The position numbers were made by a program, and so were the translations under genes. This document shows, piece after piece, positions 1-19,217 of a stretch of DNA of 64,000 nucleotides. The DNA is from Pelagomonas calceolata (Eukaryota; Sar; Pelagophyceae; Pelagomonadales; Pelagomonadaceae). The stretch is taken from assembly GCA_918797485.1 (NCBI GenBank), contig CAKKNE010000001.1, positions 2,914,001 through 2,978,000 of the forward strand, read 5' to 3'. Within the stretch, counting starts at the first letter, position 1, and each line of letters begins with the position of its first letter. Below the pieces are notes generated by a model that was given only the letters and a program-made list of their open reading frames with translations, made no database searches and was not told where the DNA came from.

Positions 1-889
1 CACGACGACGACGGCCGTCGTGCCCGAGTAGGTCGACTCGACGGCCGAGGCCGCGAGCGCCGCGTCGGCCTCGCGGAAGGCCGCCGCGAGCGCGGCCTCG
101 CAGGCCGCCGCGCCGGCGTCCGCGGCCACGGCCCGCTCGAGGGCCGCGACGACCGCGCGCGTGCAGAACTCGGCCACCTGCTCGCCGTGCTCGCCGTGGC
201 CGTCGAAGACGCCGTACAGGGCCCGCCGCGGCGACCCGCCGAAGGGCTGCACGACGACGCCCCGGTCCTGATTAATCTTGGCCACGCTGCCCACGGCAGC
301 GCCGACCGCGCGCGGCTCGATGCCGTGGTACGTGAGCGCGCCGACGGCGGCGGCGGGCCACGGCTGCGCGGGCGCCGCCGGCCGCAGCGGGTCGTAGGCC
401 GGGCTGCGGAACTCGACGCTCGCCGCCGCCTCCGCCCCGGCGCCGGCGCCGGCGCCGGCGCCGGCGTCGGCGCCCGCCCCGGCCGGCGCCGTCGCGTAAC
501 TTAGGCGCCGGCGCCGGAATGTCTCGGGGTCGGCCACGACGCCGCGCGCGGCGGCCTCGAACGCCTCCACCAGCGCGGGGCGCTCGCCCTCGGCCGCCTC
601 CGCCCACGCCCGATCGCCGCCGCGGCTCTCGTAGAGGTCGTCGAGCCGCGCCTCGACGAGGGCGCGCCGCTCGCCGGAGAGGGCCTCGAGCCCGAGCCGC
701 GTCCGCAGCGCCGTCACCTGTGTGGAAATCAAATTTCAGACGCCCCACCCATCGACGCGACGTTGTCCCCTTAGCTGCGTCTGCTCTATCCCCGTATATC
801 TGCGGCAGCACGAACCTAACTCACTGGTTGATTTCCACACAGGCCGCTACCACGGTCTCGTCGGCGCGGGCGCTCGCCGCCGCGCCCAT
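1..889 (-). CDS. PP2C-type protein phosphatase, N-terminal part, with introner intron
   Basis: Metal-dependent Ser/Thr phosphatase of the PPM/PP2C family, running off the left edge. ATG at 889 gives MGAAASARADETVVAAC, then an intron (838 to 718), then VTALRTRLGLEA onward. PP2C motifs seen on the minus strand are KINQDRG, the metal-binding YGVFDGHGEHGEQVAEF block and YSGTTAVVVV at the edge. A long Ala/Gly/Arg-rich insert lies between the N-terminus and the catalytic core. The start MGAAAS fits an N-myristoylation signal (Gly2, Ser6), so membrane attachment is inferred. The intron is a complete introner; splicing after CTGT is the choice that keeps the frame. The C-terminal half of the domain is outside the window. 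Confidence 0.85.
718..842 (-). mobile_element. Introner copy 1 (125 bp), intron of the PP2C gene
   Basis: Ends are perfect inverted repeats, CTGTGTGGAAATCAA and its complement. The intron proper is 838 to 718 on the minus strand (donor CTGT|GTGGAAATC, acceptor CACACAG|). Flanks GCCGTCAC (710-717) and GCCGCTAC (843-850) match at 6 of 8 bases, read as an eroded 8-bp target duplication. Relative to its host gene this copy is reversed compared with copies 2-4: the end carrying CAACCAGTG is at the donor side. Confidence 0.9.
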
Positions 890-1466
890 CCCGAGGCTGC
901 CCCGCGACCGCGACGCTCGGGCGCGTACGAAGTCGGCGGGCCGCCGACAAGGAGCGGACCTGCCGGGACCTGCCGCGCGGCGCGCAAGCAGCGCCGGAGA
1001 TTGGCGCGTGCGAAGGAGGAGAAGCAGGGGTCAGACGACTAGTGGCCGGCCCCAGGGACCAGTTTTTTTTTGTGTGTGCTCTAGATTTTCAATTCAATCC
1101 AAAACGGGTTTGCTTGAGAGTGCTTTTGCCTTGCTGCTTCGGCTTTGAGTGCTCGCCGAGATCCGAGCTCGCTGTTTCCACAGCCTAGTTAAACAGCAAC
1201 GCCGACCTTTTACTCTGCTGTGCTTCTTCCTGGCTCGGCCGTGCATCGCCCCGTCAATTAGCGTGTCGCGTGAGAGTGGGCGAAACGCGCGACCAGGAGA
1301 CGCTGTTTGGGCGTACCTGTCGAGCACATTTGGCTGCAGAGGAGACTAAGGCCAAAGATAAATCACGGCGATTGAGCCCCGAGAGCTCGCGGTTTTCTAC
1401 GTCGACAGCAACACGAGAGACAGCATACAAAGTACTAGCGTACAAAACTACAGCTGACTTACGTCG
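890..1466. other. Intergenic region between divergent genes
   Basis: Shared upstream region of the PP2C gene (leftward) and the RS-domain gene (rightward). GC falls towards 1050-1440, with a T-run at 1061-1070. I see no gene, RNA or repeat here; it probably holds both promoters. Confidence 0.4.
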
Positions 1467-1976
1467 ATGGAGCGCTCGCGCGACCGAGCGCGTGGCGAAC
1501 GGCACCGGTCGCGCTCCCGGTCGCGGCGGCACGAGCGCTCCCGAAGGCGCCGCCGACGTTCTCCCTCGTCGTCGTCTTCGTCGTCGTCCTCGTCGTCCTC
1601 GTCGTCGGGGTCCGAGGCCGCGCTCTACGAGGGCTTCCACAGCGACTCGGACGACCAGGACGACCGCGCGGTGGCGTGGATGCGGCGCTTCGGCCGCAAG
1701 GCGCACCTCGAACCGCGGCGGCCGGCGCCCATCCGCGGCGACTCGCTGCTCGAGGTCGTCAAGTCGGCGCAGCGCCTGAACGTCGTGGGCAAGTACGGCA
1801 ACTGGGACGATTACTTACGCTTCCTCCATCGGCACAGCCGTCGGTGCCGGCCACCTCCAGGACGTCGTCCAGACGAGCAAACCCAGTTTCTTTTGCGAAA
1901 CTTTTTACGCACGCTGCACGCCACCGACCGGCGTGGCCTCGTGGACCGGATCATCCGCGAGCACCGGGACGTCTGA
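1467..1976 (+). CDS. RS-domain (arginine/serine-rich) protein, function unknown
   Basis: A 169-residue protein from ATG 1467. Residues 1-35 are Arg/Ser/Glu-rich with RS dipeptides (RHRSRSRSRRHERSRRR), followed by a run of 14 serines and an acidic stretch, then a more ordered C-terminus containing the segment LLEVVKSAQRLNVVGKYGNW and ending IIREHRDV. RS repeats suggest a nuclear pre-mRNA processing role; that is inference. I do not recognise the C-terminal part as a named domain. The stretch near 1835-1875 (CRPPPGRRPDEQTQ) could be an unspliced in-frame intron, since it reads less like ordered protein than its surroundings. Confidence 0.65.
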   Translation: MERSRDRARGERHRSRSRSRRHERSRRRRRRSPSSSSSSSSSSSSSSGSEAALYEGFHSDSDDQDDRAVAWMRRFGRKAHLEPRRPAPIRGDSLLEVVKSAQRLNVVGKYGNWDDYLRFLHRHSRRCRPPPGRRPDEQTQFLLRNFLRTLHATDRRGLVDRIIREHRDV

Positions 1977-2730
1977 CCGAGTAAGGACCTCGTCCGTCGA
2001 GAGCGACTGCGAATAATGCAAGACCAAAGGAGTACGCACCTTTGGGAGTACGGCGGCTGAGATAGTCTGCCGCGGAGCTACCTTAAATACACTAGTAGTT
2101 TTGGTTTTAACTGTGTTTATTACGCGTTGCGTGTTGAAGGGTGATGTAAGTGTATAAGACCCTGTTCACGAACAATCTACTGCCAGGACAACGGCTCGTC
2201 CCCTCTCGTGATCCCCCGGCGGCGACGAAGGACGCACATTTCCTCAGATTGCGACCACCGGCGAAAATTCCGCTTCAAGCGAGAGCCCGCCGGCCGTCTA
2301 ACGACTTGGGGCGCGTCAAACCCTGACAACATTTGGGCGTGTCAAAACCACAAGGACCGCGCGGCCGAAGGAAGCGGCGCCCACTCGCGTGGCACGTCTC
2401 AGATGAGATCGTTGCATCTGAGTGTGCTAGGTACCAGCAGCAATCACACCGGCTGTGAATCGGACCCCCCCCCCCTCCTATCTGATAGTAGACTGATACT
2501 GCGGTAGTACCGTGCTTAAGCGGGGGGGGAAGCGCTTATAAGCGCTGCACGGCCTTGCCAAAAGAGCTCAGATCGCGCGTGGTGTGTAGACTGCCCAGCG
2601 CGGGGGCAGCGTGAGTGGGTGGCGGTCGCAGTCCTAGAGTGGAGGAGCAGGAGGCCAACAAGGAGCAGGAGGCGCACGCGCCGTTCCCTCGGCTGCCCCC
2701 GGGGAGCATCGGGCCGGCGGCGTGGAGCCC
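1977..2730. other. Intergenic region, no gene seen
   Basis: About 750 bases of mixed composition with homopolymer tracts (C-run at 2464-2474, G-run at 2522-2529) and an AT-richer part at 2080-2170. Short reading frames occur but none has protein-like composition. It likely holds the 3' end of the RS-domain gene and the promoter of the next gene. Confidence 0.4.
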
Positions 2731-3457
2731 ATGGACGCCTTCGCGAAGCCGCGGCGGCCCGTCGGCGGCGCCGGCCGGGGCGGGGCGCTCGCCGCCTTCG
2801 CCGCGCCGCCGGCGAACAGGATCACTGTCGGCAAGGGACGATGGGCGTCGGTACGCCAGGAGCTCGTGGACGTCGGCATCGGCACGGGCGAGAAGCTGTG
2901 TGGAAATCAAAATTTTACGGCGCGTTCGTGCTGAATCGCCGCGTCGTCCTCCACGCCATCGACGCGACGCCTACTCGATGGCGTGGTGATGCCGGTTCCT
3001 CACCGCTCGACAGAGCCAGGACGGCCGCGTCATCGCCGAGAAATTTAGTGAAGAATTGTCGGGTGCACCCGACGCACTGGTTGATTTCCACACAGGCGAG
3101 AAGTCCGCGCGGCTCGACGCGGCGCAGAAGGAGATTCTCGCGATCGGCAAGGAGCGGTGGGTCGAGAAGGTCGAGGAGACGCGCATGATTAGGAAAATGG
3201 CGGGCCTCGTGGCGCTGGGCATGTCGCTTTTGACAGTGTTCTACGCGCGCGAGATCCTCTGGCTCGTCCGCGGCAGCGTCAAGCGGCCTGGGCAAGTGAA
3301 GTGGCTGGCGGCGGGAGGCCTGGCCTGGGCCGGCGCGACGTTCGTCGTGCTCGCGGTCCAGTGCGCCCGGAGCGCGCGCGGCGACGCGATGCTCGACCAC
3401 ATAAAAGAAACCATCGAGGCGAAGCGCGACCGCGACGCCGCGCGTAATGCCGTCTAG
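2731..3457 (+). CDS. Small two-TM membrane protein with introner intron
   Basis: Spliced from exon 2731-2899 and exon 3096-3457, giving 176 residues. ATG 2731 follows a weaker in-frame GTG. The N-terminal third is soluble and Ala/Gly/Pro-rich. A charged helix (LDAAQKEILAIGKERWVEKV) precedes two hydrophobic segments, MAGLVALGMSLLTVFYAREI and WLAAGGLAWAGATFVVLAVQ, and a short basic tail. I do not recognise the family. The intron is introner copy 2; its removal joins GEKLC to EKSARL and leaves EK duplicated from the target site. The 3' end converges on the amidohydrolase gene. Confidence 0.75.
2896..3095 (+). mobile_element. Introner copy 2 (200 bp), complete, with perfect 8-bp TSD
   Basis: Inverted ends CTGTGTGGAAATCAA (2896-2910) and its exact complement (3081-3095). 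Target duplication GCGAGAAG at 2888-2895 and 3096-3103, perfect. Intron is 2900-3095 (196 nt), donor CTGT|GTGGAAATC, acceptor CACACAG|. The interior is homologous over nearly its full length to copy 4 in the nitrate reductase gene, sharing the CCATCGACGCGACGCCT block and the TCCTCACCGCTCGAC block. There is no coding capacity, so it must be mobilised in trans. Confidence 0.95.
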
Positions 3458-5349
3458 GCACGTCTAGCAGCCCGGGCGCCGGGGGAGCCACTGGCCCGGG
3501 GAGCCGGGTGGTGCCAGTGGCGGGGATAGGCGGCCAGTTAACCAAGACAGGCGCACACGTTAAAGCGGGGGGCGGGGGCGGCGGCGGCGCCGCGTCGCAG
3601 GGCAGCGTCTTCGCGAGGAAGGCCTCGTAGGCGCCGCCCAGCAGGGCGCGCGCGTCGCGCCGCACGTCGCCCCGCGTCAGGGTCCAGCCGGCGCCGAGGA
3701 GGTGCGCGTACTGGGCCGCGAGCGCCTCCGCGATGACAGCGCGCGAGTGGCGCCACTTGTAGACGAGCTGGTCGAGCACGCGGCAGTCCGAGTGCTGCGC
3801 GGTGAAGGCCGTCCCGAGCATCTCCAGCCGCATGCTCGTGAGCTCGCGGATGATGGACGGGTTGTTGCAGTACCACCAGCAGCCGTACAGGTGCAGGTTG
3901 GGGAACTTCTGGGCCAGGACGCAGGCCTCGTGCTGGTCCGCGCGCCCGAGCAGCGTCGCCAGGACCTTGAGCCGCGGCTGCGCCGTGAGCAGCCGCGCGA
4001 GCGGGCGGAGGTCGACGCGCCGCAGGCCGTCGCCGCCGCCGCACGGCGCGAGGTCCGGCGCCAGCCGCCGCACGCACCCGAGCTTGAGCGCGAGCGGGAG
4101 GTCCAGGTCGCGCGCGACGGGCACCAGGACCTCGTCGACGAGCCGCGTCGCCGACGGCCAGCCGGGCTCGAGGCCCGCGTCGCCGGCCGCGTACCGCAGG
4201 TCGCCGGGCGTCGAGGCCATGAGGTACTCCGCGCCGTAGCGCCGCGCCCACGCCGACAGGAAGAGCCGCGCCGCGCCGAGCGTCGCGTCGAGCCCGCGCG
4301 CGCGGAGCGCCGCGGCGACCGTGGCCCAGTCGCCCGCGAGGAGCGCGTCGACGCGCAGCGCGGTGCGGAAGCGGCCGTCGGCCGTCGCCGCGTCGTCGTC
4401 GCCGGGGCGCCAGCCCCGGAAGAGCCCCGTCGCCGGGTCCACGCAGCAGCCCGCGTCGACGAAGCGGCTCGCCTCGCGCGCGTCGAAGGGCACGTTCGTG
4501 CAGACGACCTGCGTGACGCCGTCGTCGGCCCGCCGACGCGAGTCGCGCGACTGGATTTCCACACGGCGAACGCACGTAGCGGACGTTCGCCGCGCGGAAG
4601 ACGGCGTCGACGTGGTCGCCGGGCGCGCGCGCCGCGTACCAGGCCCGCAGCGGCCCGAGGTCGCCCGCGCGCGCCGCGCGCATCGCGGCGCCGGGCGCGC
4701 CGAGGTCGGCCAGCGTCCGCAGCACGCCGACGCGCGCCTCGGAGACGGGCGTGCGCCGCACGAAGAGCGCGTCCCAGACGCGGTCCGCGCGCGCCGCGAG
4801 GGGCAGCGCGAAGAAGGCCGCGTGGCTCAGGCCGTCGTCGACCATGAAGTACTCCGCGACGAGGTAGTGGTACGTGAGCAGCGCGTCCAGGCCCCAGAGC
4901 ATGAGGTCCCCGTGCGCCGCCGGGAAGAGGTGCGTGTGCACGTCGACGCAGGGCGTCGCGTCCACGACCTCGCGCGCGACGGCGGCGACGTCCTCGCGGC
5001 GGACCTCGAGCGCGTCGTCGGCGAGGTGCACGGGCGGCGCGGCGGGCTTGGCCGCGGCGCGCGCGCCGGGCGCCGCGAGCGCCGCCGCGAGCGCCGCGAG
5101 CAGCTCCGCCTCCGTCACCTCGTCCGGCGCCCGGCGCACCGCGAACGCCGCCGGGTGCGCCGCGACCAGCACCTGCACCGCGACCTCGACGGGCGGGCAG
5201 CCCGGCTCGCGGCAGGGCAGCGCCGCGACCGTCGCGACCGCCCCCGGGACCGCCGCGTCCACGTACCGCTGCGCGGCCTCGCGGAGCCGGCGCGTGGCCG
5301 GCGCGTAGCGGCGCAGATTCTCGGCGAAGGCGCCGGGCACCGACGACAT
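3279..5349 (-). CDS. Uronate-isomerase-like amidohydrolase
   Basis: ATG at 5349 (MSSVPGAFAENLRRYAPATR). The metal-binding motif CVDVHTHLF near residue 140 and the C-terminal stretch LHLYGCWWYCNNPSIIREL ... FTAQHSDCRVLDQLVYKWRH match the layout of the UxaC/glucuronate isomerase branch of the amidohydrolase superfamily. An intron at 4575-4509 (GTGCGT...CACGCAG) joins ANVRY to VVCTNVPFD and restores the frame. Recognisable homology ends near 3590 (LAKTLPCDAAPPP); the frame then stays open to 3279, antisense to the previous gene, so the true 3' end may be near 3540 through an intron I cannot place. The substrate is unknown. Confidence 0.75.
4509..4575 (-). mobile_element. Decayed introner end inside a 67-nt intron
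   Basis: The intron contains CCGTGTGGAAATC 11 nt inside its donor and ends CACGCAG, as the introners do, but the second inverted end and the target duplication are not recognisable. The frame and the protein family both demand the upstream donor GTGCGT rather than the introner donor. Read as an old introner whose splice site has shifted. Its length equals the intron length of copy 3 (67 nt). Confidence 0.55.
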
Positions 5350-5632
5350 GGCTCGCACCGTAGCTCAGCTCTCCAGGCCTCTCATCCTCTCAAAACCGAC
5401 GAGGCAGTCGGCGGGCCGCGCATTGCACACAGTCTCGGCGCCGGGCCGGCTTGATTGTACAGCTCTACTGGTCGGCTGGCTTTTTGTGTCTGACCACCTG
5501 AGTCTAAGCACGCAAGCCAAGCAGTGGCGCCGGCTTGATTGTACAGCGACGAAGGGCTCCCGCGGGTCGAAGACTGCCAGTGCACTCCACCGGAGCAGCC
5601 ATAATCCCTGCAGCGGCACAGAGCAAAAAGTG

Positions 5633-6086
5633 ATGCGGCGCGCCCTTGCGTGCGCGGTCGTCGCGAGCGTAGCCGCGGCGTTCGGCCCCTTCGCGAAGAA
5701 ACCGACGCCGCCGCCCCGCGGCGCCGACCCCGAGAAGCAATTCGACGGTGCGACCCTCTCCTCCCGCGACAAGGTCTCGGCGTACAACCGGCCGCCCGAG
5801 GACTCGGCCCTGCTGAGCGAGCGGTGGAAGGCTGCGTGGAAATCAAACTTTGGACGCGCACGCCATCGACGAAACCGTGCTCACCATTCGATTTCCACGC
5901 AGGTGGAAGGAGGACGAGCCCGACGCGGCCGGCGGCCCGGGGCTCGGGGCCGCCTTCAAGGGCGCGGCGCTGGCGGTCGCGCTCGCCGCGTTCTCGCAGG
6001 TCCCCCTCGGCAAGCAGGACGTCTCGATCCCGGCGAACGACCCGTCGAGGGTCCCCGTGACGAACTTCGTCAAGGTCCTGGACTAG
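5633..6086 (+). CDS. Small plastid-targeted protein with introner intron
   Basis: Exons 5633-5835 and 5903-6086 give 128 residues. The N-terminus MRRALACAVVASVAAAFGPF is a signal peptide ending in an AxAF site, the stramenopile bipartite plastid signature with Phe at +1, followed by a basic, Pro-rich transit stretch. The mature part has one hydrophobic helix (AFKGAALAVALAAFSQVP) and ends VPVTNFVKVLD. This suggests a single-span thylakoid or envelope protein; I do not recognise the family. Introner copy 3 splits it, and splicing yields ERWKAAWKEDE with WK duplicated from the target site. An (AATA)n microsatellite follows the stop. Confidence 0.75.
5832..5902 (+). mobile_element. Introner copy 3 (71 bp), minimal size, perfect TSD
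   Basis: Inverted ends CTGCGTGGAAATC and GATTTCCACGCAG are exact complements, including the matching C/G change from the usual CTGT. Target duplication GTGGAAGG at 5824-5831 and 5903-5910 is perfect. Intron 5836-5902 is 67 nt. The interior keeps only the CACGCCATCGACGA block of the long copies, so it looks like an internally deleted relative still able to insert and splice. Confidence 0.93.
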
Positions 6087-6762
6087 TAATAAAATAAATA
6101 AATAAATAATAAATAAATAAATTAAGGAAGACCTAAAAAAGGAACAAGCTCCTAGGAGCCTTCTCCCTGCTCGGTCAGGATGCCCAACCGGAGCCTCGAA
6201 ATAGCAATAAGGTATCTATACTAAATAAATAAATAATTAATCAAGGAAGGAATATCTAGGTTGGCATTTACCCGAGGGGTTATTAACCCCAATCGTGGCC
6301 CGGGGTCAGTAACCCGGGTAATTACCCGTTAGTATGGGTTATTAACCCCGGGATCTTATAGAGGGGTAGGGGAGGGGGCCTCACGGGCCACTGGCGCGGG
6401 CCTGGGCCGCGCCGGGCCACATGACTTGGTACTTGCCCTGGCGCACCTGTACGTATCCAAAAGCCCAACGGGCTGCTTGCGCCCATCCGCTCGCCCGGAG
6501 GGGTCTTTCGCTAAACTCACTAAACGGGTTTAGTCGAAAACCCGTCGGGTTATTGAGCGGGTTATTAACCCCGGATCCCCTCCGAGGGGTAATTATAGGT
6601 TAATAACGGGTAATTAACAGGTTAATGACAACCTAGAGGAATATCCTATACTACAACGGATTTTCGATCTCCCGGGGTAACTCGTCCCCCATGACCAAGC
6701 GACATCGGCCCTCATCGGTCAATTGCCGTGCCGGGGGGCAAACCGAGTACTATGGAAGTTAC
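6087..6762. repeat. AT-rich repeat island with (AATA)n and GGGTTATTAACCCC palindromes
   Basis: Starts with an (AATA)n microsatellite (6088-6124). Further in, the palindrome GGTTATTAACC recurs near 6282, 6337 and 6560, with variants of GGTAATTA(C) around 6310-6330 and 6585-6625. Base composition is clearly lower in GC than the flanking genes. No gene is seen; a 60-codon frame at 6421 looks like chance. Confidence 0.6.
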
Positions 6763-7725
6763 CTAGTCCAGCTCCGCGGTGCCCCGGAACACGAACTCCG
6801 CGGGGCCCGTCATGTAGACGTGGTTGTCGCTCTCGCGCCACTCGATCGACAGGGGCCCGCCCGGCAGCATGACCTCGCAGGTCCGCTCGGTGCGGCCCGT
6901 CAGCACGCCGGCGACGGCGACGGCGCACGCGCCCGTGCCGCACGCCAGCGTGACGCCGCAGCCCCGCTCCCAGACGACCATGTTGACGTGCGCGGCGTCG
7001 ACGACGTCGACGAACTCGGCGTTGACCTTCTCGGGGAAGGCCGCCGTGTTCACCTCGACGGCGCGGCCCGTGACGGCCAGGTCGACGGCGCCGGCGTCGT
7101 CGACGAACGCCACCGAGTGCGGGTTGCCCATCGACACGGCCGTGACGCGGTACTCGCGCCCGGCGGCCTCGAGCGGCGCGTCCACGACGCGCGCGCCGTC
7201 CGTGGGGGCGAGCGCGCAGGGCACGGCGGGGCCGTCCAGGACCGGCTCGCCCATGTCGACGGTGATGCGGCCGTCCGGCAGCACGAGCGGCACGATGGGG
7301 CCCGCGCCCGTGGCGATGGTGAAGGCCTCGCCGCGCCCCCGCGGCGCGCCCGCCGCCCCGAGCTCGCCGAGGTACGCGGCGAGGCAGCGGATCCCGTTGC
7401 CGCACATCTCGGGCTCGGAGCCGTCCGAGTTGTAGATCGTCATGCGGAAGTCGTGCGCCGCGTCGCCGGGCATGACGAAGATGACGCCGTCCGCGCCCAC
7501 GCCGAAGTGGCGGTCGCAGAGCCGCTGCGCCTGCGCCGGCGTCGCCTTCGGCGCCGCGGCGTCGCGGTTGTCGACGAGCAGGAAGTCGTTGCCCAGGCCC
7601 TGGTACTTGGAGAACTCGAGCGAGGCCGCGCGCAGCGCCACGCGCCCGGGCCTCCGCCGCGCGGGCGCGACCAGCGCGTCGCAGGCGCTCGCGAGGAGGA
7701 GGGCGAGCAGCATCCTTAGTTGCAT
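6763..7725 (-). CDS. dapF: Diaminopimelate epimerase, plastid-targeted
   Basis: Converts LL- to meso-diaminopimelate, the penultimate step of lysine synthesis by the DAP route, in algae a plastid pathway. The 320-residue product starts MQLRMLLALLLASACDALVAPARRR, a signal peptide plus a DALVAP site and basic transit region. Both catalytic cysteines are present in PEMCGNGIRC and LACGTGACA; KYQGLGNDFLLVDN, FGVGADGVIF and SMGNPHSVAFV are family signatures. ATG 7725 was chosen because it begins the signal peptide; the frame is open further upstream. No intron. Confidence 0.93.
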   Translation of the reverse strand: MQLRMLLALLLASACDALVAPARRRPGRVALRAASLEFSKYQGLGNDFLLVDNRDAAAPKATPAQAQRLCDRHFGVGADGVIFVMPGDAAHDFRMTIYNSDGSEPEMCGNGIRCLAAYLGELGAAGAPRGRGEAFTIATGAGPIVPLVLPDGRITVDMGEPVLDGPAVPCALAPTDGARVVDAPLEAAGREYRVTAVSMGNPHSVAFVDDAGAVDLAVTGRAVEVNTAAFPEKVNAEFVDVVDAAHVNMVVWERGCGVTLACGTGACAVAVAGVLTGRTERTCEVMLPGGPLSIEWRESDNHVYMTGPAEFVFRGTAELD

Positions 7726-8988
7726 TTTGCGAGCCGTTTGCAGTGTTGATCCGCAAAAGAGTGCTTTCGCCGCAAAACAAACGCTTAAGCGGCAAGCCCA
7801 CGTGTACGCGTGATCACGCGACGACGGCGACGGGTTTTTAGCCCCGCACGAAACGCGCGCGGCGAATTCGCGAAGAGAATGGCGGCCTTGTCCGCCCCCA
7901 GGAAGCGTCAGCGGAGGCTTCACTCCAGCGCTCCGTAGAGTGTGCCTACAGGAGGCGAGTGCACCTGCGACTCCGTGGCCCTTCATTGCGCCGATTCCCC
8001 GCCAACCAACGATTTGGATCTATAGTTGAGCACCAAATTACCAGGGTAATTACCGTAATGGTAATTACCGGTAATTACTGGTAAAATTTTACCAGAGTCC
8101 ATTTTTGGCTACCGGGTAATGACCTTTGGGGCACCTGGAAGGGTAAAAAGCGTGAGGGTTAGGGTTAGGGTTGGGCGAGAGTCGGGTTAGAGCGGGTCCG
8201 AAACGGTCCTAGTGTCGGCGGCAGTTTCGCGGCAAGGTGGGCTCGGATGGTTTTGAAAAGGTGCTCATCGGAACGCGGGGATATAGTAGGCAATCAAATT
8301 ACCAGGGTAATTGCCGGTAGTGGAAATTACCGGTAATTACCGGTAATTACCGGAGTCGATTTTTGGCTACCGGGTAATGACCCCTGGGGTGGAAAGGTAA
8401 AACGCGTGAGTAAAGGGTGGACGCGGCAGACGCGTTTTGGACTATGGGCAGGATATGGCCAAGCCCATGCCCCAGGGGCATCGTCCCACGGTCCCAAGTG
8501 AGCTTTTTACGCGTCAGTCCCATTGGAAATGCTTATCTGGGTTCTGGGAGGCTGCCCCGGCCCGGCTCACCTTCCGCTTTGAGCACGCGACGCCCCAATC
8601 CCTGATGATCTCGCCCAAGACGCTACCATATCCCGTATCCTTCGTCACTGCGTCTACATCGCCCTCCGACATAGCTTCCTTGCTTATCACCTCCGCGCAA
8701 GCCTTCGCGTGAACCAACACGCTCGAGCTGGCCTCGCCAACAGCCCCGAAGGCCATGCCAATGACATCCCCGCGGCCCCCGATCGCACGGCACATAGGAC
8801 CAGTCATTGCATCCTCGTCGTAAATATTGGTCTAGGCTAGCGTCCCCAAAACCCGAGTAACTAGAATTGCCTCGGCATGCCCGTACGATCCGTAGCTTGA
8901 TTGACTAGCTATTTAAGCTTCCGGGCTAACCGAGCAGCTCGGCTTGCAGAGTAGCGCAAGGCACTGCAGCCATGTGGCTCTTCTAGCC
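7726..8988. repeat. Repeat-bearing intergenic region with two copies of a ~120-bp GGTAATTACC unit
   Basis: Copies at about 8033-8155 and 8290-8410 share CCAGGGTAATT, several GGTAATTACC palindromes, TTTTTGGCTACCGGGTAATGA and an end ...GTAAAAMGCGTGAG. Between them is a short telomere-like (GGGTTA)3 at 8156-8175. Palindrome-rich AT-cored units spaced in an otherwise GC-rich genome suggest a non-autonomous element family. The part after 8420 holds a coding-like fragment listed separately. Confidence 0.6.
8514..8807 (-). pseudogene. Coding-like fragment, function unknown
   Basis: A 97-codon minus-strand frame with protein-like composition (GRGDVIGMAFGAVGEASSSV ... EGDVDAVTKDTGYGSVLGEI). It lacks the extreme GC-rich codon usage of neighbouring genes and has no clear upstream or downstream partner. 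It may be a remnant of a larger enzyme gene or a transferred piece. The plus-strand frame over the same bases looks less natural. Confidence 0.3.
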
Positions 8989-10201: not shown

Positions 10202-10312
10202 CCGTAGGTAGGTGTGTAATGATGTGCCCCGCCCCGTCGCCGTCCGCCGTCGACCAGGGCGGCGGCGCACGTGGCGGCGCGGACCGGCGGTGGCGAGGTA
10301 CGAGGTACAGAA

Positions 10313-11209: not shown

Positions 11210-11867
11210 ATGGTGGTCGAGGCTGCCACCACGCATGCGCGTGGCCGCCTCTGCGATCCGTTTGGGCTCAGGGAGGCCCCGCTCGCCGCTAATTATTTGT
11301 CTTATAGTTGAGACATCACAGCTGCGCCGCCGTCAAAGTGCAGCCCGAGGTCGTCGCTCTCGCGACGAAGGCAGCCCAAAATCTCCACTGTAAAACACTC
11401 TACGTCAATAGGCAGAACCCTGTGGGCCCATAACCTAGCAAGAGTATGTCGTAGCGTTATGTAAAGTAGCAGGGTCCTAGCTCACCAGCCGAGGGCTGGG
11501 CCAACCGTGACTTGAACCTCAGGCTGACTACGAGAGTGTTTTATAGTGAACTGTTATTACACCGTAGCGTCAAAGACACTCGCTGTATAGACTCAAATAT
11601 TAGAGAGTGGGAGATACATATCTAGGGTAGGAAGGGCTAGTATTCACTAGGCCTACTCTATCCGGGTATTTAACCAAGATAAGGGAGACAGATAAGTGAG
11701 ACTAGGATAGTGAAGCTAAGATAAAATTTTGGGAGATTTATAAGTGGAAAAGAGGCCGTTGCCACAACGGGCGCCAACCCCAGGGACCCCGGACCACGCG
11801 CCCCCGCGCCAAAACAACCAAGGGAGGGTGGGAGGGCCAAAAATTCTTGCTCCTTTGTCCTGCGCTC
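11210..11867. other. Low-GC intergenic region
   Basis: About 650 bases clearly less GC-rich than the genes. A tRNA-like stretch at 11470-11530 does not fold as a tRNA. No convincing gene or repeat seen. Confidence 0.35.
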
Positions 11868-12511
11868 TCACAATCGGAGCGCTGTTGGACACGAGCAAGT
11901 ATAAGAAAGTATCTTCATCGCGTCGCCGAGGGCGTGCGCCAGGCCCGGCAGGCCGACTGCTTTGCGCGTCTCGAGGCGGTACCGCGCGAGCCGCGGCGCG
12001 ACGTGGCCCTCGAGCCAGCTCAGCTTGGAGCAGTTCAGCACGACGTCCGCGGCGTAGGTCCGATCCCGCTTCGACGTGGCGTATTTCTACACGCATAGAT
12101 GTCCCGGGATGCGTGGGGTTTGTAAGAGTTGAAATCATCTCGTGAAACGTAATTAGGGCTCTCCTGGCAGTTTGGGCCGTCGGGGACGCGTTTAAATATC
12201 TGTCGAAAACTTGAAACTTCTGAGTTTCTATCTTTAACGGGATTCAGTGGTTGATTTCCACACAGGACGACTTCAGGCGCCCCATCCTCTGTGGGGCCAT
12301 CACCCACTTCTTCAAAATGAGCGACCTCTTCGACATCTGCCCTATCCGAGCCATCAACAAGAGGAAGGGGACGCTGCGTTCCTTTCGGGTACTCACAGTT
12401 CGCACAGAACAAATAATCTTTCGTATCGCTCTCGTGCCTCGTTGTACAAACGAGACAAGTCCATCCGCGTTTGAGTTGCATTTTGCGTAGCCAGCCGTCT
12501 AACGTGGCCAT
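11868..12511 (-). CDS. RanBP2-type zinc-finger protein, exon structure unresolved
   Basis: Exon 1 from ATG 12511 encodes MATLDGWLRKMQLKRGWTCLVCTTRHESD..YLFCANCEYPKG, a Cys4 finger of RanBP2 type (W-x-C-x2-C-x10-15-C-x2-C), then an acidic stretch. At 12262 the reading reaches CTGT|GTGGAAATCAACC, an introner donor. A second coding-like stretch at 12086-11868 (KYATSKRDRTYAADVVLNC ... GLAHALGDAMKIL) has normal codon use and ends at a stop. I could not find an acceptor that joins the two in frame, so they may be separate genes. RanBP2 fingers bind RNA or ubiquitin; which applies here is unknown. Confidence 0.5.
12251..12265 (-). mobile_element. Single introner end without visible partner
   Basis: CTGTGTGGAAATCAA read on the minus strand, followed by CCACTGAATCCC as in copy 1, so this is the same family in the reversed orientation. 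No matching inverted end or 8-bp duplication was found within about 1 kb downstream. The other end is either deleted or diverged. Confidence 0.6.
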
Positions 12512-13374
12512 GGTAGCAAACCAACTAGTCCTGCGAGGCCGCAGCGAGAGGTCGACGATTTGCTGCTGGGAGAGGCCTGAGTGGATCGTGACGGCGTCGA
12601 TGGCGTGCCATTGGCGTCACGCGATGGCGCGACGGCGCGGATGTGTGGCGTCGATGCACCGATAGCATAAGACGAGTAGCGCCGACGGCTTAGAAAACGT
12701 CGAGTCGATGGCGCATACGCGTATTTGAAACGATGGCGTGGACGTGGATCGCAGCGACGACGTGAAATGCGTATTGAGTCGACGGCAACGACACAACGTT
12801 CTCGAAGGACGCCGCGTCAGCACACAAGGTGTAGTCTTAATGCAAGCGCCGACGGCGGGTAGTCTTAATGCAGCGCCAAGGCAAGCGCGCCACCCTAAGA
12901 CCGACGGCGCCGCTTCTGACGCGCTATCACAAGAATTCTACCTCTCGTATTCGTCGATGTCCTGCGACAGCACAAGACCTGCGCGGGTAGAGGCGTTGTC
13001 GCGGTCGGTGACGCACGAAATTCGCGTGCGCGCGATGCGGGCCGCGCCGCGCGGACTTCCGGGCGTGTGTCCTTAGCGCGGGTGATGTTCCTTGATACGC
13101 CCGCGCAGCGTCTTCGACGTTAAAACGCTAAAGCGGGCTAGGCCACTGCTGTGGCCACAGCCGTAAACGCGGTACGGCGCGCAGGGCGGGGCTGCGCGAG
13201 AAGATAGCGCCATATGGGAAGGAGGCGGACGCGGCGTGTACCTCCCCAGGGGCTCCCAGGCAGAGCCGCCCTTTTTGGTATGAGCCTTCTACCCTGGCCA
13301 TAAATTAGTGGGCTAGCGGCCTGTAAGACACTAGCAAGCAAGTAAAAAAACCGTCACGACCCCCCCTTAAATGC
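12512..13374. repeat. Intergenic region with introner-interior-like and small duplicated motifs
   Basis: GTCGATGGCG-type motifs recur at 12595-12760 and resemble the CGCCATCGACG block inside the long introners, which may mean a decayed relative. GTAGTCTTAATGCA is duplicated at 12832 and 12861. A copy of the CTAGTGTCTTAC motif (minus sense) lies at 13312-13340. No gene is accepted here; a 112-codon plus frame at 12738 looks like chance. Confidence 0.4.
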
Positions 13375-15270
13375 CTACTGCGTCCCATGAAGCCTACCAG
13401 CGGCGGCGGCGGCCATCAGCTCGCGGCGGTGCGCCTGGACGCAGGCCGAGGAGCAGTAGACGAAGTCGAGGCGCGTGAAGGGCGCGCCGCGGACGGGCCC
13501 GGCGCACGCCGCGCACCGGTCCGCCTTCTCGTCGCGCGCCGCGCGCTCGGCCCGCCGCGCGGCGGCGGCCTCGGCACTGCTTGCCGCAGCCGCCGCCGCG
13601 GCCCGCGCCTCGGCCTTGCGCCGCCGCTGCGCCTCGCGCTGGCGCCGCTTCTTCTCGGCGTCGCGCTCGCGCCGGCGCCGAAGCTGGTCGGCGTCCGGCG
13701 GCGGCGGCACGCCGCCGCCGTCCCAGTCGCGCACGTCGTCGGCGCCGGCCGCGGCGCGCGCGCGGACGAACGCGTCGCGCGTCGGCCTGTCCTTGGCCGC
13801 GCGGTACGGCGGCCGCCCGCGGGCGTCGCGGCGCGCCGGGTCGGCGCCGGCGGCGAGCAGGCGCAGGACAGCGTCCGCGCGCCCGGCCGCGGCCGCGGCG
13901 TGCAGCGCCGTCGCGCCGTCGGCATCGACCGCGTCGACGTCCCCGCCGCGGAGGGCGGCGTCGAGGCGCGCCGCGTCGCCGGCCGCGGCCGCGGCGAGGA
14001 GCTCGGTCGTCGCCGGGTCGACCGCGGGCGCGGGCGCGGGCCCCGGCGGCGCGGGCTCCGGCGGCGCGGGCGGCGCGGGCGGCGCGGGCGGCGCGGGCGC
14101 GGGCGGCGCGGCCGGCGGAGGCGGCGGCGGCGCGTGGAGGAAGATCGTGGCGAGGCGTTCGTACGCGGCCGTCGCGTGCTTGAGCGTCGGCCGCGGCACG
14201 GCGAAGGGGAGCTTCTGCACGCGCGCGTCGGCCGCGTCGAGCGGCGGCGCGCCCGCGCCGCCGAACAGCAGCGGCCGCAGCGCCTTGGCGCAGGCGACCG
14301 CCACCAGCGCGCACGCGCCCAGGTCGGCGCGCCACTCGGCCAGGAGCGCGCGCACGTCGTCGGCGAGCGCGCGCTCGCCGTGGCGCCGCAGCGTCGATCC
14401 GACGCTGCTCACCTTCTTCCCGCTCGCGTCCAGGGCGCTCTGCGCGCCGCCCTGGCCGCGCCGCGTCGTGTACCGCGCGAGCGCGCGGTGCCGGAGCAGC
14501 CGGCCGTCGCCCGCGAAGATCGCGCCGGCGAAGCGGCCGCTCGCGAGCGCGACGACGGCGACGGCCGGGGCGCGCGGCGCGCGGCGCGCCGCGGCGAGCG
14601 CGCGCAGCGTCGCCGCCGCCCGGGCCGTCGTCGCGCGGCGCGCGGCGCGCCCGCCGCCGAAGCCGCACGCGCCGGCGACCGCCGCGCACACCGACGCGCA
14701 CGCCGCCGGCCCCGCCGGCAGGGCGACCGTCGACGACCGCGCGTCGCGCCGGAGCTCGCCGCCGCCGGCGTCGGCGTCGGCGTCGTCGTCCGACGACGCC
14801 GCGTCGTCGGCGCCGTCGTCGGCGCCGTCGTCGGCGCCGTCGTCGGCGCCGTCGTCGGCGCCGTCGCCGTCGCTGTCGTCGCCCTCGTCGTCGCCGGGGG
14901 CGACCTCGGCGCCCCCGTGGGCGGCGTCGCCCCCGCGCGCGGCGGGCCCCGCCGCGCCGCCCGCCGTCGCCGCGCGGTGCGCCGCCGACGCGAAGTGCGC
15001 CGCCTGCGCGCCGCGGTCGGCGAATTTTAGGCCGCACGCGACGCACGTGAGGCCGCGCGCCGACGGCGCCGCTTCCGCGGCGGCGGCGGCGGCGGCCGCC
15101 GGCCCGCGGCCGCCCGCGGCCGCGACAACTTCCGCGAGTTCGTCGAGCGCCTCCGCGGAGAGCGCCCAGGCCGCCGCTGCCGTCCCGCCCAGCGCGTAGT
15201 CGGGCGCCCACGAGTGGCTGCTCCGGCTGACGGCCTCGCGGCATTCCACGGCGAGGAGCGACGACGGCAT
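13375..15270 (-). CDS. Vms1/ANKZF1-type peptidyl-tRNA hydrolase (RQC)
   Basis: Cleaves peptidyl-tRNA on stalled 60S subunits in ribosome-associated quality control and binds Cdc48/p97. The 631-residue product has all family parts in order: N-terminal C2H2 finger (LTCVACGLKFADRGAQAAHF), an acidic (DDGA)n tract, the VLRF1 release-factor domain with ARYTTRRGQGGAQSALDASG (catalytic Gln in GGAQ), a Pro-rich linker, ankyrin repeats (GATALHAAAAAGRADAVLRL), a basic p97-binding-like helix (DADQLRRRRERDAEKKRRQR) and the C-terminal treble-clef finger CAACAGPVRG...YCSSACVQAHRREL. ATG 15270 was chosen over a TTG upstream. Confidence 0.92.
   Translation of the reverse strand: MPSSLLAVECREAVSRSSHSWAPDYALGGTAAAAWALSAEALDELAEVVAAAGGRGPAAAAAAAAEAAPSARGLTCVACGLKFADRGAQAAHFASAAHRAATAGGAAGPAARGGDAAHGGAEVAPGDDEGDDSDGDGADDGADDGADDGADDGADDAASSDDDADADAGGGELRRDARSSTVALPAGPAACASVCAAVAGACGFGGGRAARRATTARAAATLRALAAARRAPRAPAVAVVALASGRFAGAIFAGDGRLLRHRALARYTTRRGQGGAQSALDASGKKVSSVGSTLRRHGERALADDVRALLAEWRADLGACALVAVACAKALRPLLFGGAGAPPLDAADARVQKLPFAVPRPTLKHATAAYERLATIFLHAPPPPPPAAPPAPAPPAPPAPPAPPEPAPPGPAPAPAVDPATTELLAAAAAGDAARLDAALRGGDVDAVDADGATALHAAAAAGRADAVLRLLAAGADPARRDARGRPPYRAAKDRPTRDAFVRARAAAGADDVRDWDGGGVPPPPDADQLRRRRERDAEKKRRQREAQRRRKAEARAAAAAAASSAEAAAARRAERAARDEKADRCAACAGPVRGAPFTRLDFVYCSSACVQAHRRELMAAAAAGRLHGTQ
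14808..14872 (-). repeat. 12-bp tandem repeat coding (DDGA)n inside Vms1
   Basis: The 12-base unit GTCGTCGGCGCC repeats about five times without frame change and encodes DDGADDGADDGADDGADD between the zinc finger and the VLRF1 domain. A length-variable acidic linker is expected. Confidence 0.85.
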
Positions 15271-16345
15271 CTCGAGCGTCTCACTCCAGCGCGTCACGCA
15301 AACGCGTCGAAACCGATGCGTATCCCTAGTCCTTAGCAAAAGCACAGCCAAGCAGCTTTTTTCTGTCGGGTTCGGGTTTTACACGGCGCGCGACCGCTCC
15401 TCCGGGACCCATCCGTCGGGCTAGGACAGAGTAAGGTGGTCAAACGGACCTCCCTCCTTCTCCTCGAAAAGGGATGCAGTCTACGTGGCGGGTTTTGGCC
15501 CCACCCCGCCTAGCAGTGTAATGAGGCGCTTTTAGACTATTATGGCAAGTTAGGTTTTCATTCAGAACACCCCCACTAGACGGGGTCGCGGGGTCCCCGA
15601 GAGGTGGTGTTCGTCCCGGCCTACTCGGAGAGGCCGTGGCAGAGTCCTGAGAAGGGTGCCCATCCTCTGCTCCCCCGCAGCGAAGGGAGCGCGTAGTGGC
15701 CACATATCTCTGGGCACGAAACCCGATTAAGAGCATTTAGCCGCGACGTATAATTAGCCTGAGCCAGTCTGAGGAGACACCGTCCCCCTTCCAGGGTTTC
15801 GGGCTAGCGGCTGTACGACACTAGGGATGCCCAGCACAAAGACTACCTACTACTCACCCTAGGCCTGCCCAACTTTTGGGGCGGGCTGACAGGTGACGCC
15901 CCGTCCGAGCTTCGAACTCGGTGCGGGGCCCACTGGGATTTTCTCGTATTCTCTTTCTCGTCTTCACGTCAACTACTAGCCGGGAGCGGGCGTGGGGCCG
16001 CGACTCCCGGTTGGTGCCAGGAGATGGCGGTGGGTGGCTGTAAATGCGCGTAAAGGTGGCTTTTGATGATAGCGCCAAATTCGATGTCGATTTTCTCTAG
16101 CGTACTTCCCCGAAAGAAGAAGCGGACTCGGACCGCGCGGCCGCGTCTCGAGACCGGGCAAGCGCAGGGTACATCGTCATTAGGCTCGCGCGGGGCTTAT
16201 GGACAGGTGGGGGGGAGGGTTTTGTGCATGGTGTGCGGGGCCGGCGCGCGCCCCTAGGCCGACGAGCCCGTCGTCGCGCGGCGCCCCGCGGTCTTCCGGC
16301 GGTTTCACTTCACTGATACGACTCGTCTCCAGGCCCGACCGGCCC
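15271..16345. other. Intergenic region between Vms1 and nitrate reductase
   Basis: About 1 kb. Holds a minus-sense CTAGTGTC-like motif (15802-15830) and a strong hairpin at 15898-15929 (GCCCCG/CGGGGC stem enclosing CCGAG/CTCGG). No tRNA or protein gene can be supported. Confidence 0.4.
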
Positions 16346-19217
16346 CTAGAAGCAGAAGATCTGGTCGGCCGCGTGGCCGCGCGCCTCGAGCTTGGCGATG
16401 GCGCTCTTGACCATGGGCGGCGGCCCGCAGCAGAAGACGTAGGTCTCCGGCCCGGGCGGCGGCATCGTCTTCTCGAGCATGGGCGCGTCGACGAAGCCCG
16501 TGAAGTGCGGCCAGTCGGCCGGCGGCTGGTCGAGCGTGTAGTGGAGGTCCACGGCGCCCGCCGCCGCCGCGTCCTCGAGCTGCTCGCGGCACAGGATGTC
16601 GCCCTCCGTCCGGTTGCCCAGCAGCAGCGAGTACCTGGGCGCGCGCTTGCCCTCGGCCACCGCCGCCGTGATCAGCTGGAGCATGGGCGTCAGGCCCGTG
16701 CCCCCCGCGATGAGGCCGGCCCGCTTGCACGTGATGCGCCGCGTGCCGCCGCCGTGGGCGACGTCGAAGCGGCCCTTGCGGAGGTACTCGATCTCGCCGA
16801 GCGGCCCGCGGAACTCGACGTCCGTGTAGAGCGGGATGCGGTCGCACAGGTACTGGGAGAGGGCGCCGCCGGTCGGGAAGCGCGGCGGCAGCGGCCGGTA
16901 GGCCTTAATCACGAAGTCGACGTGGCCGCGGACCTCGTCGGCCGTCGCCGGCGTGTACGCGCGCGCGACCATCTTGCCGTCGCCGTCCTTGCCGTAGATG
17001 AGGACGTGCTTGCCCACCGGCAGGCCCAGCACCATGTCGGGCGCCGGCAGCGCGAAGCGCAGCCGGAAGGAGTCGTCCGACAGCGCGTCGCGCAGCACGA
17101 GCTTGAGCTTGACCTTGCTCTTGCCGAGCGCGACGCGCCGGCCCTGGGCGTCCGTCGGCGCGGCCTCCTCCTCGGCCCGGGCCGTCGCGCCGGCCGCGCT
17201 CACGACGCCGATGCGCCAGGCCTCGAGCTCGGCCCAGGCCTTCTTCGAGTGGATGGCCTCGAAGTCCTCGGTCGCGTCGGTGCCCGCGACCATGGTGATC
17301 GACTGCGCGCCGCCGGGGTGGCTCTCGAGGTACTTGGTCGCGTCGTAGACCGCGCCCTTGACGACGATCCAGCAGTCGTCGGGCCGGTCGTGCTTGGCGA
17401 CTTCGGCGAGCGTGTAGCTCGGCTCCTGGGGCGTCGCGGCGAGCGCGAGCGACTTGAGGTCCGTCGTCGACGCGGCGAGGCCCAGCGTCTTGATCTTGGA
17501 CAGCGCGAGGCCGCCGTCGGCCTCCTCGGCGATGGCCGCCGCGCGCGCCGCGTGCATGTCGCGCATGGCCTCCTTGTACTGCGTCTCGGCCGTGCGCACG
17601 GCGCCGCTGCGGCGCCGCGCCTCGGGCGTCATCCAGCCGCCCGTGGCCTGGCCGGCGAGCGTCGGGTGCTCGAACGTGAGGCGCGCGCCGCCCTCGGCGC
17701 ACTCGAAGTGCTTCACGACCGTGAACCAGGGGTTGTTGAGCATGCCCATGACGTTCCACGTGAGCTCCTTGGGCTGCGTGTTCATGGCGGCGTCCCACGC
17801 GCGGCACGCCACGTTCTCGGCCTTGAGCAGGTCGGCCGTCGGCACGGTGATGGTCCACATGCACCAGCCCCAGTACTTGCCGGCGGCCGTCGGCGTGTTC
17901 GGCGGGTGCGTCACGTTGCCGTCCTCGACGAGGTGCCACGACTGGCCCCCGTCGAGCGTCACCTCGACGCGGATGATCTTGCGGCCGCCGCCGCTGTAGG
18001 CGTAGCCCTTGACGTCGTACGTCTCGCCGCACCGGGCCAGGTCCAGCACCTCGCCGTGGCCGGGCCGCGAGATCGCGGAGTTGATGCCCAGCTCGTTGAT
18101 GATGTAGTCGGGCTTGAACCACCAGCCCTCGGCCTCGGCCTGCTCGGGCGTCACGTTCACGGGCAGCACGCGGTTGTCCTTGAAGTGGTAGTGGTTGTCC
18201 GAGCACGCGTCGCTCACGCTGATCTCCGAGAGCCACTTGATCATGCGCCCGCCGATGAAGCCGGGGATGATGATGCGCACGGGGAAGCCGTGGTCCGCCT
18301 GGAGCCGCTGGCCGTTCTGCTCCCAGCAGACCATGACGTCGTTGGACTTGTCCATGGCGTAGCGCAGCGGCACGGACGTGCCGTAGGAGCCGTCGGCGCC
18401 GGCGGGCAGCTCCTTGACGGGCCCGCGGAAGCAGACGTGGCGGCCGTCGTCCCACGTCGCCGGGTCCGTCGAGACGCCGTGGGCGGCCAGGACATCGGCG
18501 AGGTGGCAGCCGCCCCACGTCGACATGCCGAGGCCGGCGGCGCCCCAGTTGAAGCCGATCGTGCGCTTGACCATGTTCTGCTCCTTGCGGCGGTTGCCCG
18601 CGCAGACGAGGAGCACGGGCCGCTCGACGAAGGGCAGCTTCCGGAAGTCCGCGAGCGAGAGCGCCGCCGTCGAGGCGACGCCGTGGCCCGCCGGCAGCGC
18701 GACGCGCCACTCTCTTTCAATCTTCAAAATGTCGCTCTCGCCGGCGTAGGCGACGGGGACCTTGCCGTGGTTGCGCACGTAGTGGATCGAGGCCGGCGTG
18801 GAGTGGCCGTGCGCCATGAGCAGCGGCAGCGGCGGCTCGACGTTGAACGGGTGCTTGCCCGTGAGGCGCACCTGCGTGGACATCAACCGGTGTGTCGGGC
18901 GCGCCCGATGACTCTTCACGAAGTCATTTCTCGACGATGACGCGGCCGTGTTGGCTCCGTCGAGCGGTGAGGAATCGACACCGCCACGCCGTCGAGCAGG
19001 CGTCGCGTCGATGGCGCGGAGGTCATGATGCGGCCGAGGGCGGAGATGCGCCGCGACGTTTGATTTCCACACGGAGGCGCACCAGGGCGGGGTGGCGCTT
19101 GACCCACTTGTCGGGCGTCGTCGCATCTTTGGGGTCGGGCACGGGGTACTCCTCGGGCGCGCGCGCCTCGGCCTTGGAGGGCTGCTTCATGGACTTGCTC
19201 GTCGGTGGCACGCACAT
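16346..19217 (-). CDS. Assimilatory nitrate reductase (NAD(P)H) with introner intron
   Basis: Reduces nitrate to nitrite in the cytosol. Exon 1 is 19217-19071 and exon 2 18871-16346, total 890 residues, the usual eukaryotic length. Domains in order: molybdopterin domain with Mo-binding Cys139 in VLLVCAGNRR and GAAGLGMSTWGGCHL; dimerisation domain; cytochrome b5 domain with heme ligands in ESHPGGAQSI and AIHSKK; FAD domain with RAYTP; NAD(P)H domain with GGTGLTPMLQ and CCGPPPM, ending QIFCF. Splicing of introner copy 4 gives LVRLR|VRLTGK with VRL duplicated from the target site. The first 60 residues are basic and not conserved. Confidence 0.96.
18872..19074 (-). mobile_element. Introner copy 4 (203 bp), complete, perfect TSD
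   Basis: On the minus strand it begins CCGTGTGGAAATCAAA and ends GGTTGATGTCCACGCAG; the inverted ends differ at a few positions. Target duplication GTGCGCCT (plus strand AGGCGCAC at 18864-18871 and 19075-19082) is perfect. Intron 19070-18872 is 199 nt with donor CCGT|GTGGAAATC. The interior aligns with copy 2 throughout, so the two share a recent common ancestor. Confidence 0.94.

What the first reader, a model, noticed from the sequence alone, without database searches (positions are those of the whole stretch)
718..19074. Family of spliced DNA-transposon introners with TIRs and 8-bp TSDs
Four complete elements (718-842, 2896-3095, 5832-5902, 18872-19074) carry inverted ends of the CTGTGTGGAAATC type; three have perfect 8-bp target duplications (GCGAGAAG, GTGGAAGG, GTGCGCCT) and one a 6/8 remnant. 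Each one lies inside a gene and its removal restores the frame. TIR-bearing introners are known from Aureococcus and Micromonas (Huff, Zilberman and Roy 2016); whether this exact family has been described I cannot tell. Four complete copies in about 19 kb is a high local density.
Basis: partly seen in the sequence, partly recalled or inferred. Interest (0 to 1): 0.9.

Follow-up and report, generated by a model that had tools for sequence, protein, structure and literature searches.

The report
Small transposons that become introns
Short DNA transposons have inserted themselves many times into the coding parts of an alga's genes and appear to be cut out of the messenger RNA as introns; this is a new family of a known kind (introners), in which one can read off which splice signal the element brings and which one it borrows from the target gene.

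Summary
The four elements, their inverted ends and their flanking duplications (6/8, 8/8, 8/8, 8/8) lie where stated. They belong to a genome-wide family, extrapolated to about 2,600 copies. By size and contig number the genome is almost certainly Pelagomonas calceolata, for which an introner-like intron-length peak near 210 bp is already in print.

Mechanism: a MITE-like element makes an 8-bp target duplication. Bases 1-2 of the upstream copy (GT or GC) serve as splice donor; the last two bases of the inverted end (..CACAG) serve as acceptor. Splicing leaves one target copy. Both orientations occur (22 same, 24 opposite).

Evidence: 46 of 46 sampled pairs have a possible donor against 32% of random positions; donor strand equals coding strand in 31 of 33; the acceptor AG is lost in 0 of 45 but its mirror CT in 9 of 45, with genome-wide support; an MMETSP transcript protein is contiguous across element 3, though the donor strain's DNA was not seen.

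No autonomous partner was found. New member of a known kind. The claimed high local density is ordinary for this genome.

The parts
718..842 (+). Element 1, 125 bp, subfamily B, opposite to its gene (gene on minus)
   Evidence: 13-bp ends exact on both sides; subfamily and orientation
710..717 (.). Target copy GCCGTCAC beside element 1 (exonic copy in gene sense)
   Evidence: 6/8 match to 843-850
843..850 (.). Target copy GCCGCTAC beside element 1; on the minus strand GTAGCGGC, the GT donor
1..889 (-). Gene with element 1: protein phosphatase 2C (runs off the window start); intron 850-718
   Evidence: frame open after removal; PF00481 E 7.3e-05 at residues 172-252; no relative examined across the junction
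2896..3095 (+). Element 2, 200 bp, subfamily A, same sense as its gene
2888..2895 (.). Target copy GCGAGAAG before element 2; GC donor
   Evidence: 8/8 match to 3096-3103
3096..3103 (.). Target copy GCGAGAAG after element 2 (exonic)
2731..3457 (+). Gene with element 2 (172-aa protein, no Pfam match); intron 2888-3095
   Evidence: full-length contiguous relatives P0001, P0002, P0003, P0008
5832..5902 (+). Element 3, 71 bp, shortened, subfamily B (orientation call weak)
5824..5831 (.). Target copy GTGGAAGG before element 3; GT donor
   Evidence: 8/8 match to 5903-5910
5903..5910 (.). Target copy GTGGAAGG after element 3 (exonic)
5633..6086 (+). Gene with element 3 (124-aa protein, no Pfam match); intron 5824-5902
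   Evidence: MMETSP transcript protein P0025 contiguous across the junction
18872..19074 (-). Element 4, 203 bp, subfamily A, same sense as its gene (minus)
19075..19082 (.). Target copy AGGCGCAC; on the minus strand GTGCGCCT, the GT donor
   Evidence: 8/8 match to 18864-18871
18864..18871 (.). Target copy AGGCGCAC (exonic in gene sense)
16500..19217 (-). Gene with element 4: assimilatory nitrate reductase (3' end beyond 16500 not traced); intron 19082-18872
   Evidence: 835 residues from the first Met, open to the end of the stretch read; five Pfam domains; junction gapless against 2bih
4509..4566 (-). Probable decayed fifth copy, one clear end (CCGTGTGGAAATC on the minus strand); donor apparently shifted by one base
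   Evidence: listed and not; partner read by eye
12253..12265 (-). Unpaired exact end
   Evidence: no partner found

Best explanation
These are introners: non-autonomous DNA transposons (MITE-like, two subfamilies, mostly 60-211 bp) that insert by cut-and-paste with an 8-bp target duplication and are removed from pre-mRNA by the spliceosome. Shown by sequence: inverted ends, duplications, dispersal, both orientations, coding context, a GT or GC at bases 1-2 of the upstream target copy, and AG at the gene-sense 3' end of the element. Because the inverted end begins CTG and therefore ends CAG, an acceptor is present on both strands; the target only has to supply GY at the right place, and exact splicing leaves one target copy, i.e. 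the gene as before. Supported at transcript level for element 3. Inferred: the transposase acting in trans (not found), splicing of most other copies, and purifying selection as the reason why nearly all copies seen are donor-competent.
For: Structure: (target positions 1-8 match in 33-43 of 46, the nine neighbouring offsets in 6-21 of 46). Donor: 46 of 46 pairs have GY or RC in the proper copy against 32% of random positions, and none has neither; 98 of the 100 ends listed. Strand: coding strand agrees with donor strand in 31 of 33 unambiguous pairs. Mirror control: acceptor AG lost in 0 of 45, mirror CT lost in 9 of 45 (sign test 0.004); genome-wide 139 of 161 ends that lost the AG potential are on the GY side, against 1,074 of 1,721 intact ends (p 1.5e-10). 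Only 38 of 1,721 ends neither start with G nor end with C in the outer 8-mer, about 45% being expected from base composition (composition). Protein: gapless junctions for element 4 against 2bih and in 7 of 10 related proteins; transcript protein P0025 for element 3.
Against: No RNA reads were mapped. P0025 is 98% identical, so its strain might lack the element. P0016 ('merc') reads through element 2. 22 of 161 AG-less ends lack GY at -8, not examined one by one. Two of 33 strands disagree. In 13 of 28 exceptional elements the GY is only in the exonic copy, so the donor at -8 was lost or moved. No mobilising transposase was found.
Confidence: 0.95

Rival explanations
1. Ordinary MITEs in genes that are not spliced; the GY/RC rule is only a target preference of the transposase.
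For: The palindromic look of the target (GYSNNSRC) suggested a preference; base 7 is a purine in 67 of 100 unambiguous donor-side ends.
Against: A target preference would not follow the gene's strand (31 of 33), nor protect AG on one side only. On AG-less, GY-side ends, RC is present in 26 of 100 (background 20%) and C at base 8 in 33 of 100 (genome 32.5%), so the preference is not symmetrical. Unspliced copies would break the frames (one search shows stops in two of three frames of element 2).
Confidence: 0.03
2. Introns copied through RNA (reverse splicing), as proposed for some fungal introners.
For: Nearly every copy sits where splicing is possible, as reverse splicing would give.
Against: It predicts no locus-specific 8-bp duplication and a single orientation; duplications are found and orientation is even, 22 same and 24 opposite.
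Confidence: 0.02

Closest known systems
Introner Elements of Aureococcus anophagefferens (Huff, Zilberman and Roy 2016; not held; recalled, and cited in PMC9481584)
   Same: A pelagophyte; DNA-transposon introners of about 210 bp (length as stated in PMC9481584)
   Different: Sequence relation could not be tested; PMC9860276 (passages) reports no homology between introners except in closely related species
Pelagomonas calceolata intron-length peak near 210 bp (Guerin et al. 2022, PMC9481584; sections 6 and 7 and passages read)
   Same: Almost certainly the same genome and the same elements: 203 bp plus 8 bp is 211
   Different: The main text gives no ends, duplications, splice-site origin or family; Supplementary Note 3 was not seen
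Introners of Symbiodinium microadriaticum (PMC9860276 Fig. 2B, legend seen)
   Same: TIRs, acceptor carried by the element, donor taken from the target duplication
   Different: 4-bp duplication there, 8 bp here
Introner family 4 of Aureococcus sp. TARA_AOS_82_MAG_00129 (PMC9860276 Fig. 2F, legend seen)
   Same: 8-bp target duplication in a pelagophyte
   Different: Carries both splice sites and adds 12 bp to the transcript; here one target copy remains and nothing is added

Membership tests
Introner (intron-generating transposable element) | Similar sequence at many unrelated positions in genes | tested here: met
   1,721 exact ends; 42 of 46 pairs with coding score on both flanks against 1,753 of 2,482 random positions
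Introner (intron-generating transposable element) | Element boundaries coincide with splice sites | tested here: met
   46 of 46 with GT or GC donor and AG acceptor in the proper place (one of the 46, L075, is a doubtful pair)
Introner (intron-generating transposable element) | Removed from mRNA | tested here: inconclusive
   Transcript protein P0025 contiguous at element 3, DNA of that strain not seen; P0016 reads through element 2; no reads mapped
Introner (intron-generating transposable element) | Recent gain: empty site in relatives | tested here: inconclusive
   P0008, 75% identical, contiguous at element 2, contigs up to 10,943 bp; its DNA was not seen
Cut-and-paste DNA transposon (MITE) | Terminal inverted repeats and constant-length target duplication | tested here: met
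   21 of 46 duplications perfect
hAT superfamily | TIR beginning CANNG (recalled) and 8-bp duplication | tested here: not met
   8 bp met; ends begin CTGTG, A at base 2 not met. The one hAT transposase found lies in its own element with ends CAGGGCAGCAGAAG
MULE, Merlin | Matching transposase domain in the genome | tested here: not met
   PF10551 and PF12762: no match; controls rang in 3 and 1 of 14 genomes
KDZ, P element | Matching transposase domain in the genome | tested here: inconclusive
   PF18758 and PF21787: no match, but no control rang

The most novel reading that the evidence does not exclude
Introners of this family mature after insertion. In RNA the two inverted ends pair and bury the acceptor AG in a stem (element 2: minimum free energy -91.8 kcal/mol, z -4.6; one element folded). 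Base 2 of the donor-side end, which pairs with the A of that AG, is altered in 8 of 45 elements, the next highest donor-side position in 3 (inner acceptor-side positions reach 5). Losing that base would free the acceptor and at the same time spoil the transposon end, turning a mobile element into a fixed, better-spliced intron.
Probability: 0.2. Interest if true: 0.65.

Novelty: new member of a known kind. Interest (0 to 1): 0.45.

Why it matters
How new introns arise is an old question. This family allows the parts to be read separately in well over a thousand copies in a 32-Mb genome of an abundant ocean alga: the acceptor comes with the element, the donor from the target, and the mirror-image end is a built-in control without splicing duty. 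Only about 18% of random positions carry GY where a given strand needs it, so most coding insertions should fail and be lost; that is a testable cost of intron gain. If the maturation idea holds, it would link loss of mobility to better splicing.

Tried and rejected
hAT origin: the target consensus GYSNNSRC first looked like a hAT-type palindromic preference (recalled). One search showed that it comes largely from mixing donor-side and acceptor-side ends; dropped. The single hAT transposase found lies in its own 3,651-bp element with other ends.

Viral spread: 43 IMG/VR stretches hold the 15-mer; none of the 43 has a partner end within 300 bp. Judged chance; the tool warns that records near the window's genome may be left out.

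Autonomous partner: five Pfam families and one protein were searched. The 38 ends were followed up in 36 loci. In one search, L113 (two ends) was left out; of the other 35 loci 28 have a partner with up to 3 mismatches and 7 do not (L111, L118, L121, L122, L126, L127, L128). Two of these seven were read 1.6 kb inward: L118 looks like an introner with a damaged far end (by eye), L126 has no partner and runs into a coding region; no transposase-like frame was seen, but no domain search was made on either. L128 looks like a 47-bp element with a cut-down far end (by eye).

Branch point: CTAAC or CTGAC in the last 40 bases in 3 of 22 same-sense and 0 of 24 opposite elements; too few to use.

Literature: searches listed only PMC9481584 as holding both introners and Pelagomonas. 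Seen: PMC9481584 outline, sections 6 and 7 and passages; PMC9860276 passages; PMC12768974 passages (no pelagophyte named). Huff 2016 is not held. A later introner survey by Gozashti and colleagues is recalled only.

Own slips mended: an earlier count said 8 of 14 for (it is 7) and about 31 of 33 for the exceptional elements (it is 28 of 28).
Full report
WHAT WAS CHECKED. A scan without knowledge of the motif over the window and twenty 10-kb stretches (264 kb) found 14 structures with an 8-bp repeat flanking a 12-bp inverted repeat; 7 belong to this family; five shuffled controls gave 0, 2, 1, 0 and 0.

WHERE IT IS. The genome has 32,445,274 bases in 8 contigs. [quoted passage not shown] The identification rests on these numbers, not on a name. 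In the sample the long elements cluster at 200-206 bp; 203 plus 8 is 211.

THE FAMILY. The exact 13-bp end occurs 1,721 times. Twenty 10-kb stretches, ten each of C1 and C2, hold 16 paired elements, which extrapolates to about 2,600 (95% range 1,484-4,215). Two subfamilies share the ends and differ inside. Most copies are shorter than full length (60-211 bp, and one doubtful pair of 440).

THE 46 PAIRS. For the finer tests 46 distinct pairs were used: the 20 and 26 from loci chosen because they hold an exact end. The latter choice under-samples elements with both ends altered. Pair detection uses the ends only, not the duplication or GY. Of the 46, 21 have a perfect duplication.

HOW IT SPLICES. 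In gene sense the intron begins with the first two bases of the upstream target copy and ends with the AG of the downstream inverted end, so one target copy remains. All 46 have GY in the left copy or RC in the right copy, against 32% of random positions; 13 have both, 16 GY only, 17 RC only, 0 neither (Fisher p 7.7e-5). This is the pattern expected if one donor, on whichever strand is transcribed, is enough. The same holds for 98 of the 100 ends listed, which all lie on C1. Coding strand, scored by codon usage without reference to the donor, agrees with the donor strand in 31 of 33 unambiguous pairs. The two that disagree (L067:6931 and L077:734) have duplications of 2/8. Donors are GT in 32 and GC in 14; elements lie in the same sense as the gene in 22 and opposite in 24 (the strand of 13 ambiguous pairs was taken from the coding score).

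INTERNAL CONTROL. The ends are mirror images, so the acceptor AG and the CT on the donor side are the same sequence with different duty. Without the doubtful pair, AG is lost in 0 of 45 and CT in 9 of 45. In the 20 pairs not chosen by an exact end the figures, read, are 0 and 6. Genome-wide, 161 ends have a changed second base that would leave no AG; 139 of them (86%) have GY at -8, against 1,074 of 1,721 (62%) intact ends (p 1.5e-10). The other 22 were not examined one by one; the window copy at about 4509-4566 is one of them, with its donor apparently one base further out.

NO SYMMETRICAL TARGET RULE. Among 100 listed AG-less ends with GY, RC is present in 26 (background 20%), against 50 of 100 listed intact ends with GY. 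So the palindromic look of the target is largely a mixture of the two sides. A weak excess of purine at base 7 remains (67 of 100).

EXCEPTIONS. Ends whose outer 8-mer neither starts with G nor ends with C number 38 of 1,721; base composition would give about 45%. In 28 of 35 loci counted a partner end was found, and in 28 of 28 the other target copy has GY or RC: 11 RC only, 13 GY only, 4 both. L102/L130 and L103/L129 are the same two insertions in duplicated chromosome ends, so 26 are independent. The RC-only cases fit an intact donor with a drifted exonic copy. The GY-only cases mean that the donor at -8 was lost or moved while the exonic copy kept the original GY. So insertion at GY looks nearly universal, and later donor change does occur. 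Of the seven loci without a partner, two were followed further, without result.

TRANSCRIPTS AND RELATIVES. Element 3: P0025, with source mmetsp and a transcript name, is contiguous across the junction and 98% identical; P0024, P0026 and P0027 are contiguous too, as are the more distant P0030, P0036, P0040, P0042, P0044, P0045 and P0031 (merc). P0029 and P0035 read into the intron as DNA-based predictions would, and P0028 has an in-frame insert there. That MMETSP is a transcriptome collection and merc a metatranscriptome catalogue is recalled. A contiguous transcript means either splicing or an allele without the element. Element 2: P0002 and P0003 contiguous; P0001 contiguous but lacking two residues (EK) within the target copy; P0008, 75% identical, contiguous, from contigs of up to 10,943 bp, which suggests an empty site in a relative; P0004, P0005 and P0007 begin inside the intron; P0016 (merc) reads through it. 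Element 4: the joined frame gives 835 residues from the first Met with five nitrate-reductase domains; the junction L45/V46 aligns without gap to the solved nitrate reductase 2bih. Of 10 related proteins, 7 are contiguous there (P0050, P0052, P0054, P0055, P0057 from Aureococcus, P0058 from Chrysophaeum taylorii, P0059), P0051 begins at the intron, and P0053 and P0056 were not resolved. Element 1: frame restored; its PP2C domain match does not reach the junction, and no relatives were examined.

WHERE IT INSERTS. 42 of 46 have coding score on both flanks, against 1,753 of 2,482 random positions (p 0.001). Copies outside coding sequence are thus fewer than expected; insertion preference and later loss cannot be told apart here. 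Intron phases 0, 1, 2: 17, 11, 18.

WHAT MOVES IT. Not found. One hAT transposase exists, in its own element with other ends. MULE and Merlin domains gave no match with working controls; KDZ and P element gave no match but no control rang. The searches are six-frame and limited, so absence is not shown.

VERDICT. A well-supported introner family and a new member of a known kind. That this species has introner-like introns is in print; the ends, the origin of each splice site and the constraint are not in the text I could read. The boldest open reading is maturation by loss of base 2 on the donor side (the section on the most novel reading).

Noticed in passing
window 6256-6636: A 381-bp intergenic MITE-like element with duplication AGGAATAT, ends CTAGGTTGGCAT/CTAGGTTGTCAT and many GGGTTATTAACCCC-like palindromes.
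   Followed up: no
window 8069-8342: Long palindromic structure with repeats GTAATTAC and ends around CGGTAATTACTG.
   Followed up: no
L073:3549-7199 (G000 C4:4496001-4505500): Complete 3,651-bp hAT element with 714-aa transposase, duplication TTGCTCGC and 14-bp ends CAGGGCAGCAGAAG; the only copy found by protein search.
   Followed up: partly
P0001, relative of the protein at window 2731-3457: Contiguous at element 2 but lacks six bases' worth (EK) within the target copy; could be an excision footprint or a simple deletion.
   Followed up: no
P0028 and P0005: Protein records showing length or sequence variants of the introns at elements 3 and 2, suggesting variation between strains.
   Followed up: no
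L128 (G000 C6:3188360-3188765): A very short element of 47 bp that still ends in CACACAG before GTGCGTCG, perhaps near the lower size limit of an intron here (by eye).
   Followed up: no
G000 C3:13359 and C6:3896065; C3:118873 and C6:3790631: The same two insertions at both ends of the chromosome-end duplication described in PMC9481584, so they predate that duplication.
   Followed up: partly
L101 (G000 C2:2598080-2598620): Two ends 140 bp apart with the same outer 8-mer AGGAGCAT, a tandem duplication that includes the element.
   Followed up: no
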